Shown here: positions 17,258 to 21,033 of the stretch, one piece after another
Layout: the number at the start of each line of letters is the position of its first letter
Position numbering within the stretch: the first letter of the stretch is position 1
Assembly: GCA_001001555.1 (NCBI GenBank)
Contig: LCKS01000006.1
Location: forward strand, 1-47,788
Source of the DNA: Candidatus Amesbacteria bacterium GW2011_GWC2_45_19
GTDB taxonomy: Bacteria; Patescibacteriota; Microgenomatia; CAZETR01; Amesbacteraceae
Reading direction: 5' to 3'
Length of the DNA stretch: 47,788 nt
Program-made: the position numbers and the translations under genes
The notes under the pieces: model-generated
Seen by the model: only the letters and a program-made list of their open reading frames with translations
The model's database searches: none
Told to the model about the DNA's origin: nothing

Positions 17258-17525
17258 CTGCCCTTTAAAAAGACATGCGGGGTAGTGTAAAGCCGCACGG
17301 AAGGCTAGTAGTATGGGCCCTTCCTGTAGTAATGCAGGACAGCAAATTTGGCTATATCGGTGGACACCCAGCACCAGTTGGTGCTGGACTATACCGAGGC
17401 AACCCTTCGACTTCGCTCATGGCAAGTCCCAGGAGAGTCCGTAGAGACTACACGCCAAATACCCTTCGGGGTAATGATATAGTCCGACACTCAAAGTAAT
17501 TTGAGATTACAGATCAAGCATAATC
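17258..17525 (+). ncRNA. Group I intron-like catalytic RNA; splice borders not resolved
   Basis: P1 CTGCCCU(17258-17264)/GGGGTAG(17279-17285) with terminal U.G; P2 GGAAGG/CCTTCC; P3 ATTTGGC(17346-17352)/GCCAAAT(17454-17460); P4 TCGGT/ACCGA; P5 CCAGCACC-AGTT-GGTGCTGG; P7 GACTA(17446-17450)/TAGTC(17480-17484); P8 TACCC-TTCG-GGGTA; P9 CTCAAA-GTAA-TTTGAG. Confidence 0.85.
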
Positions 17526-19480: not shown

Positions 19481-19861
19481 ATGGAATACGATGGAATTTA
19501 CAAAATATTAGACCCCGAATGGAAACGCAAAACCTTCCAGTGGAATCTGGGCTTACTCGCCCTGGGGACTATTGCAGATATAGCTACAACCGTAGCATTT
19601 TTGTCCATAGGACTAAAAGAAGCGAATCCTCTTAGTGTCTGGCTATTAAACAACTTCGGAATTCCCGGATTCGTGGTGGCAAAAATCGGCCTTACCACAT
19701 ACGGCATCAACGGACTCAGAAATCTATATAACAACATTAGACCTGATGAAAATAGAGGGTTAAAAGAATACGCCTACATCCTTACAGCCAGAACCGTCAA
19801 CGTAGGGCTTGCTGCCGTAGCTGTGGGAAACCTACTTGGTTATTTTGGTGTAATAAAATAG
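19481..19861 (+). CDS. Hypothetical membrane protein (DUF5658-like)
   Basis: GLLALGTIADIATTVAFLSIGLKEANPLSVWLLN. Confidence 0.65.
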   Translation: MEYDGIYKILDPEWKRKTFQWNLGLLALGTIADIATTVAFLSIGLKEANPLSVWLLNNFGIPGFVVAKIGLTTYGINGLRNLYNNIRPDENRGLKEYAYILTARTVNVGLAAVAVGNLLGYFGVIK

Positions 19862-20077
19862 TGGACTCTTTACGAAAAAATACGGACTGAGTTTCAAAGG
19901 TAGCCCGCCAAAGGCGGGCAGGCGCGCGAGTGCCCCCACCCCGCCTGCAAACGCTTTGCGTAGCATTGCGGGCAGGCCACTCGCAGCGCCATCTTCACGC
20001 TCGCCTGCCCGCCTCTGGAGGGGCCTTCGGCCTCGCTTATGTTTCGCACGCGCGATTTTTGCTCGCTTCGCGAGCAA

Positions 20078-20650
20078 TTACCTTTTAACTTGAGTCATCG
20101 CCTTTCTATATGCTTCAACATTTTCTGTTATTAGTTTTTGTCTTTCTCTTTCGGGTAGTCTTGAAGACCACTTCTCAATGTATTCTAAATATCTATCTGC
20201 TTTCCCAATTTCAAAAGCATATCTATATTCTTCACAAGTAGCTAAGCCGTGTGCAACAGCAACGCGGTTTTTTGTACCAATACGCTCTGGGGGGGGTGAA
20301 AGTGACCAACCGTTTTTCGCGTAAGTCCACATTTCAAAAATTTCATGCCTGACTGTAACTGGAATAACATCTGTAAAATCTTCTCCGTTTACACGAAAGT
20401 CGTCTTCATTGACATAAATAGTGGCATCTTCAATAGCTTTTCCTTCGGGAACTTGGAAAACTACTCCCATAAAACGTCCCATTGCTGCCCCAGCACCTGC
20501 TAACCGAGCATACGAATTACTATCCAATCTTTGGACTCTTTGTTCCATTATTCCAAAAAAGGCATCTTTAGATTCTGCCGGCTGACCCCTGTTGATCAAG
20601 AGCTTATTGCCTTCTATTTTTACTGGTTCTGAAGCTGATACTTCTGACAT
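20078..20650 (-). CDS. Hypothetical protein
   Basis: 190 aa ORF with RHEIFEMW and CEEYRYAFEIGK segments. Confidence 0.7.
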   Translation of the reverse strand: MSEVSASEPVKIEGNKLLINRGQPAESKDAFFGIMEQRVQRLDSNSYARLAGAGAAMGRFMGVVFQVPEGKAIEDATIYVNEDDFRVNGEDFTDVIPVTVRHEIFEMWTYAKNGWSLSPPPERIGTKNRVAVAHGLATCEEYRYAFEIGKADRYLEYIEKWSSRLPERERQKLITENVEAYRKAMTQVKR

Positions 20651-20710
20651 ATTTTTATTGATTGCTACCGGCCGTTAACTTGCCTAAGTATACCAAAATT
20701 TTCGGAAATC

Positions 20711-20719
20711 TGGTATATT
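20711..20719 (+). promoter_or_regulatory. Extended -10 promoter candidate (TGgTATATT)
   Basis: TGGTATATT a few nt upstream of the pseudoknot. Confidence 0.35.
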
Positions 20720-20723
20720 GATT

Positions 20724-20812
20724 GTGGAACCAACTTTTAGGGAATCGCTTTTTTGATGGCGCAATCGGACAACTAGAAGCGATTCTTAGTTGGTTCCACC
20801 GGTTGCGCCATT
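20724..20812 (+). ncRNA. Candidate structured RNA with H-type pseudoknot
   Basis: GTGGAACCAACT(20724-20735)/AGTTGGTTCCAC(20788-20799), 12 bp; GAATCGCTT(20742-20750)/AAGCGATTC(20777-20785), 9 bp; loop ATGGCGCAATCGG(20756-20768) pairs with downstream CCGGTTGCGCCAT(20799-20811). Confidence 0.65.
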
Positions 20813-20899
20813 TAAGTTTTAGTTCTTTAAAATTTTTGCGTTTTTCTTTTCCTCTTTTATGTGCGGCGGCTTTTTTGCGTATATAAACAGGGCTTTGCA

Positions 20900-20931
20900 G
20901 CGCTCGCCGCGGGGGCGGGCGCGGCGAGCGC
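20900..20931. repeat. GC-rich perfect hairpin downstream of tRNA-Ile
   Basis: GCGCTCGCCGCG-GGGGCGGG-CGCGGCGAGCGC, 12-bp stem. Confidence 0.8.
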
Positions 20932-20962
20932 CATTCTCGACTCGCCGAACTCTCCATTTCTG

Positions 20963-21033
20963 TGGGCCCGGGAGGAGTCGGACCTCCGCTCTTACTTTAT
21001 AAGAGTAATGTCCTACCGTTAAACGACGGGCCC
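20963..21033 (-). tRNA. tRNA-Ile (anticodon TAT)
   Basis: GGGCCCG/CGGGCCC acceptor; anticodon stem TTACT-CTTATAA-AGTAA; T arm GGAGG-TCCGACT-CCTCC; no encoded CCA. Confidence 0.88.

What the first reader, a model, noticed from the sequence alone, without database searches (positions are those of the whole stretch)
20724..20812. Compact RNA pseudoknot candidate behind an extended -10 promoter
Order A-B-C-B'-A'-C': a 12-bp and a 9-bp perfect helix stack into one long hairpin whose loop (ATGGCGCAATCGG) is complementary over about 13 nt to the sequence just 3' of the hairpin (CCGGTTGCGCCAT). This defines an H-type pseudoknot. The non-Watson-Crick positions (20751/20776 and 20765/20802) are U.G on the plus-strand RNA and would be A.C on the other strand, so a plus-strand RNA is favoured. 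TGGTATATT lies about 5 nt upstream, so transcription would start at the first stem. I know of no matching family.
Basis: partly seen in the sequence, partly recalled or inferred. Interest (0 to 1): 0.75.

Follow-up and report, generated by a model that had tools for sequence, protein, structure and literature searches.

The report
Pseudoknot RNA of tRNA-end mobile element
The sequence is one copy of a previously uncatalogued, strongly conserved folded RNA that rides, with its own promoter and usually beside one gene on its other side, on small mobile DNA elements that insert next to tRNA genes in ultra-small (CPR) bacteria, and whose exact job is still unknown.

Summary
The three helices are in the sequence, fold far better than shuffles (z = -5.1), and covary across 29 distinct homologues: 17 of 30 pairs have compensatory double changes, 0/500 shuffles match any measure, and slid registers collapse. 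The family is absent from Rfam 15. It occurs in 95 of 374 genomes of the class, with up to 7 copies each, and patchily.

The new part is the context. The RNA is a component of a mobile element that inserts at the 3' end of tRNA genes. The window's element spans about 19861-20960, abuts tRNA-Ile(TAT), and is missing from the same syntenic site in relatives. In 19 of 48 loci the RNA lies upstream of a large serine recombinase gene. The window copy is a derivative without recombinase. The gene on the other side of the RNA differs widely between elements.

The RNA is not universal: about a third of related recombinase loci have it. My best guess is an element-encoded regulatory RNA acting on recombinase expression. 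Function and transcription are inferred, not shown.

The parts
19861..19909 (-). Left (X) arm of the element, outer end; further X-like sequence runs to about 20045
   Evidence: nhmmer hit of the X-arm profile built from 14 recombinase-bearing copies, E = 0.0002
20046..20062 (.). Subterminal GC motif (GCACGCGCGATTTTTGC) that lies between the arm and the cargo gene in other copies
   Evidence: sequence shown; motif positions in other copies (the regex used there did not mark this copy)
20078..20650 (-). Cargo gene (190 aa), divergent from the RNA; no Pfam match
   Evidence: ORF; no Pfam family; a divergent ORF at the same place in most copies
20711..20719 (+). Extended -10 element TGGTATATT of the RNA promoter (no -35 at normal spacing in this copy)
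   Evidence: promoter conservation over 49 copies; strict scan negative
20724..20812 (+). Pseudoknot RNA core: A 20724-20735/20788-20799, B 20742-20750/20777-20785, C 20756-20768/20799-20811; conserved loops CTTTTTTRA and ACA
20813..20850 (+). Conserved A/T-rich tail (GTTCTTTAAAATTTTTGCGTTTTTCTTT); also an arm motif, kept in elements that lack the pseudoknot; complementary to recombinase leaders in related elements
20849..20956 (+). Right arm (RE), GC-rich hairpin
   Evidence: RE profile hit, E = 8e-21
20963..21033 (-). tRNA-Ile(TAT), the insertion target, whose 3' end faces the element
   Evidence: same tRNA between the same two genes without the element in relatives

Best explanation
It is a real structured RNA, about 90-125 nt, encoded by a family of small integrative elements of Microgenomates-type Patescibacteria that insert at the 3' ends of many different tRNA genes and are mobilised by a large serine recombinase. 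Shown computationally: the covarying fold, the promoter, the element arms, the tRNA junctions, the empty sites, and the place upstream of the recombinase gene. Inferred: the RNA starts at helix A, its stable pseudoknot protects the 5' end, and it regulates the element. In full elements it is the 5' part of the recombinase transcript. In recombinase-less copies such as the window it is a separate small RNA, whose tail could base-pair with the leader just upstream of the recombinase start codon and dampen recombinase synthesis, as antisense RNAs do for some transposases. Confidence by layer: structured RNA about 0.95; component of this mobile element about 0.9; regulator of recombinase expression about 0.35.
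For: Covariation: 90.8% of cells paired, 92 cells changed on both sides against 20.7 in shuffles, 0/500. Own against foreign partner pairing 0.98/0.99/0.90 against 0.60/0.47/0.75 for A/B/C. -35 and -10 conserved at fixed distance in 49 copies, with nothing conserved further upstream. Recombinase = Resolvase + Recombinase + Zn_ribbon_recom, downstream of the RNA in 19 of 48 loci. The right arm abuts a tRNA 3' end in 22 of 26 loci with an arm. 28 of 30 recombinase homologues have an opposite-strand tRNA just downstream. Synteny without the element in relatives. Tail/leader duplex stronger than shuffles in most of 17 elements, up to -35.0 against -11.9 kcal/mol. Helices and promoter are also kept in recombinase-less copies.
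Against: No transcript is shown. The tail is an arm motif also present in elements without the pseudoknot, so its complementarity to the leader may be a by-product of the inverted arms. Several elements show no or little excess complementarity (L085, L079, L072, L082). Most recombinase homologues (about 20 of 30) have no detectable pseudoknot upstream, so it is not essential to the element family. No intrinsic terminator marks its 3' end.
Confidence: 0.6

Rival explanations
1. Cis-only leader: the pseudoknot is a 5' UTR switch or attenuator of the recombinase gene, and copies without recombinase are decaying remnants.
For: In 19 of 48 loci promoter, pseudoknot and recombinase are in one direction; in L160, which lacks the pseudoknot, a similar promoter runs straight into the tail.
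Against: Recombinase-less copies, including the window and others in the same genome, keep promoter and compensatory pairing. About 300 nt of arm sequence separates the RNA from the gene.
Confidence: 0.25
2. RNA partner or guide of the recombinase, selecting targets or donor ends (bridge-RNA-like logic).
For: Structured RNA 5' of a recombinase gene; many different tRNAs are used as targets.
Against: Elements without the RNA insert at tRNA ends in the same way. The copies beside tRNA-Ile and tRNA-Glu (L051, L052) share the 5' strand of helix A and loop C, so these parts do not follow the target.
Confidence: 0.1
3. DNA-level site: the hairpin is a recombination or gene-capture site (integron attC-like) and the RNA is incidental.
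For: One variable cargo gene per element next to a constant folded site; mosaic copies with joints in the conserved loop.
Against: Conserved promoter; serine recombinases are not known to use folded single strands (own knowledge). The sample of mosaics is biased because selected for an intact loop; assembly error is possible.
Confidence: 0.12
4. RNA half of an addiction or cargo-control module with the divergent cargo gene.
For: A divergent gene starts within about 300 nt of the RNA core end in most loci.
Against: Cargo genes are unrelated to one another: dehydrogenase, transporter, acetyltransferase, BRO-N, hydrolase and others.
Confidence: 0.1
5. Chance inverted repeats or a plain terminator.
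For: None found.
Against: z = -5.1, covariation, no terminator match.
Confidence: 0.01

Closest known systems
Large serine recombinase elements (Resolvase + Recombinase + Zn_ribbon_recom)
   Same: Domain architecture, integration at specific sites, arms at both ends
   Different: Very small, one variable cargo gene, many tRNA targets, carries a conserved folded RNA
IS10 RNA-OUT and similar antisense RNAs of transposons
   Same: Element-encoded stable folded RNA that could pair with the recombinase leader
   Different: Pseudoknot, encoded outside the recombinase gene; pairing not shown; different enzyme class
IS110 bridge RNA
   Same: Structured noncoding RNA 5' of a recombinase gene
   Different: Serine not DEDD recombinase; RNA apparently dispensable for tRNA targeting; no guide loops found
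Integron cassettes with attC
   Same: One variable gene joined to a fold-conserved site
   Different: RNA has its own promoter, the element's recombinase is serine-type, no cassette array

Membership tests
Any Rfam 15 family | Score above the curated gathering threshold | tested here: not met
   No hit in the window feature or in six related loci apart from tRNAs
Large serine recombinase element | Resolvase N-domain, Recombinase and zinc ribbon domains | tested here: met
   Related element protein, all three above cut-off; the window copy itself lacks the gene
Large serine recombinase element | Precise insertion with an empty site in relatives | tested here: met
   Tyrosine-recombinase-like gene, tRNA-Ile and TraG-like gene syntenic without the element in relatives; the exact left junction base was not resolved
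Transposon antisense RNA (RNA-OUT type) | Complementarity to the translation start region of the recombinase | tested here: inconclusive
   Strong in about half of the elements tested, weak in others; the tail is also an arm motif
Transposon antisense RNA (RNA-OUT type) | Discrete stable transcript repressing in trans | not testable with these tools
   No expression data
IS110 bridge RNA | IS110 DEDD/Tnp_20 recombinase | tested here: not met
   Recombinase is a large serine recombinase
IS110 bridge RNA | RNA required for target choice | tested here: inconclusive
   RNA-less relatives sit at tRNA ends too, which argues against it
Integron attC | Integron tyrosine integrase and cassette array | tested here: not met
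   The element's recombinase is serine-type; single-gene elements

The most novel reading that the evidence does not exclude
The pseudoknot RNA binds the large serine recombinase and controls its choice or direction of recombination, which would make it the first RNA cofactor of a serine recombinase that I know of.
Probability: 0.1. Interest if true: 0.95.

Novelty: new variant of a known kind. Interest (0 to 1): 0.7.

Why it matters
It adds an RNA family with unusually strong covariation to a branch of life with few known regulatory RNAs, and ties it to what looks like an undescribed mobile element that moves single genes between CPR genomes through tRNA sites. Eight literature searches found no description of either, in open-access papers only. 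It makes a concrete question testable: do these elements control a serine recombinase with an RNA, and how?

Tried and rejected
Rfam at gathering and at E <= 5: only chance hits. Viral contigs: no exact match to the loop pattern. Pairing between tRNA T-arm and helix A looked suggestive by eye but fails for the window and L052. A small ORF at the loop ATG was rejected because frames and stops differ between copies. HDV-like ribozyme: helix order does not match (own knowledge). 'MITE left end' reading: dropped when the recombinase-less copies proved to be whole elements with cargo and two arms. Direct repeats of the target of 11 nt or more: none found by exact search, though CAGCCAGTA recurs at both ends of L065. 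Covariation in the CM-fitted alignment put helix C out of register in divergent copies, so I used an independent alignment.

Full report
Observation. Base 20799 is counted in both A' and C', and A' and C' have no linker, so a standard stacked H-type fold is sterically doubtful; a side-by-side packing or alternating pairing is possible. This is my reasoning from helix lengths, not a tool result.

Homologues. The stretch recurs 6 times in its own 813.8-kb genome by BLAST and 7 times by covariance model. In the class 95 of 374 genomes match, with up to 7 copies each. In a phylum-wide draw 23 of 380 match, some outside the class. In the window's own family only 4 of 14 genomes match, not including the same-genus genome, so the distribution is patchy. 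Named hosts in a pattern scan are nearly all Microgenomates groups such as Levy-, Woese-, Roizman-, Daviesbacteria and Amesbacteria, with a few others.

Structure test. On a MAFFT alignment of 29 distinct copies, made without the structure, 90.8% of pair cells are standard pairs; 17 of 30 pairs show changes on both sides; on all five measures none of 500 shuffles reaches the observed value; sliding the register by one drops paired cells to 39-45%. Helix C, the pseudoknot helix, has 6 pairs with compensatory changes. A conserved U.G wobble sits at alignment columns 44/82 (U.G in 23, U.A in 6). An alignment-free test gives the same result: each copy's C pairs better with its own 3' region (0.92) than with those of other C classes (0.72) or shuffled ones (0.58). 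The covariance model used to collect many of the copies held A and B but not C, so C is the more independent test. Copies in this test were also picked partly for good pairing (thresholds), which favours the structure somewhat. Plus-strand G.U exceeds A.C.

Promoter. Upstream of 49 distinct copies a TTGTTT-like -35 and a TRTATANT -10 are conserved, with no conservation above -36. The window copy has only the extended -10. Transcription is inferred.

Element. Profiles of the arms and a recombinase search gave a map of 48 loci. Full form: X arm, GC motif, cargo gene (leftward), promoter, pseudoknot, tail, X arm joined to RE arm, large serine recombinase, GC motif, RE arm, tRNA (opposite strand). 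Window form: X arm, cargo, promoter, pseudoknot, tail, RE arm, tRNA. Three loci show the inner part turned round relative to the arms (L065, L088, L097), which suggests inversion between the tail motif and the GC motif; this is inference. The RE arm abuts a tRNA 3' end in 22 of 26 loci that have one. Among 30 recombinase homologues chosen without regard to the RNA, 28 have an opposite-strand tRNA just downstream. In relatives the same tyrosine-recombinase-like gene (my reading of the sequence), tRNA-Ile(TAT) and TraG-like gene stand together without the element, for example in the same-genus genome, where the TraG-like protein is 93% identical.

Is the RNA essential to the element? No. About 9-10 of the 30 recombinase loci have it. 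Those without it keep the tail motif and the arms and have other genes in its place, for example small helix-turn-helix proteins read by eye from the sequence (not run against Pfam). So the tail is an arm motif and the pseudoknot is an optional module. Conversely, most pseudoknot loci show at least one arm or the recombinase nearby.

Cargo. Of ten cargo proteins scanned, eight have Pfam matches and these are to unrelated families: alginate lyase, GNAT acetyltransferase, BRO-N, endonuclease/exonuclease/phosphatase, hydrolase-like, EamA transporter, beta-propeller, short-chain dehydrogenase. The window's cargo has none.

Mechanism. I favour a regulatory RNA acting on recombinase expression because the RNA lies upstream of the recombinase in the same direction where the gene is present, is kept with its promoter where the gene is absent, and its tail is complementary to the recombinase leader in many elements. 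The complementarity is weak in several elements and is expected anyway if the arms are inverted repeats, so this layer is only about 0.35 likely. A guide role is disfavoured because RNA-less elements reach tRNA ends too.

Limits. No expression data. Many loci lie at contig ends. Some mosaic copies may be assembly errors. Literature was searched only in open-access full text.

Noticed in passing
window 17297-17506 (+): Group I intron match above Rfam's gathering score (E = 1.7e-11); its host gene was not worked out.
   Followed up: no
L106, L110, L116, L126; L004, L104, L107: Mosaic or truncated pseudoknot copies whose joint lies in the conserved loop. Those were selected for an intact loop, and assembly error is possible.
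   Followed up: partly
L068, L077, L098, L080, L095: Small GIY-YIG nuclease-like ORFs close to pseudoknot copies or to the target tRNA.
   Followed up: partly
L053, L073, L077, L086, L094, L097, L099: Cargo proteins share a short N-terminus (MENQINIGNQNTQQIGQNP-like) plus a hydrophobic segment, but differ afterwards.
   Followed up: no
L069, L083, L089, L092 and others: The recombinase reading frame runs through the right arm into the antisense strand of the tRNA gene, so its last residues are tRNA-encoded.
   Followed up: no
L065, L088, L097: Inner part of the element inverted relative to its arms; possible flip-flop inversion.
   Followed up: partly
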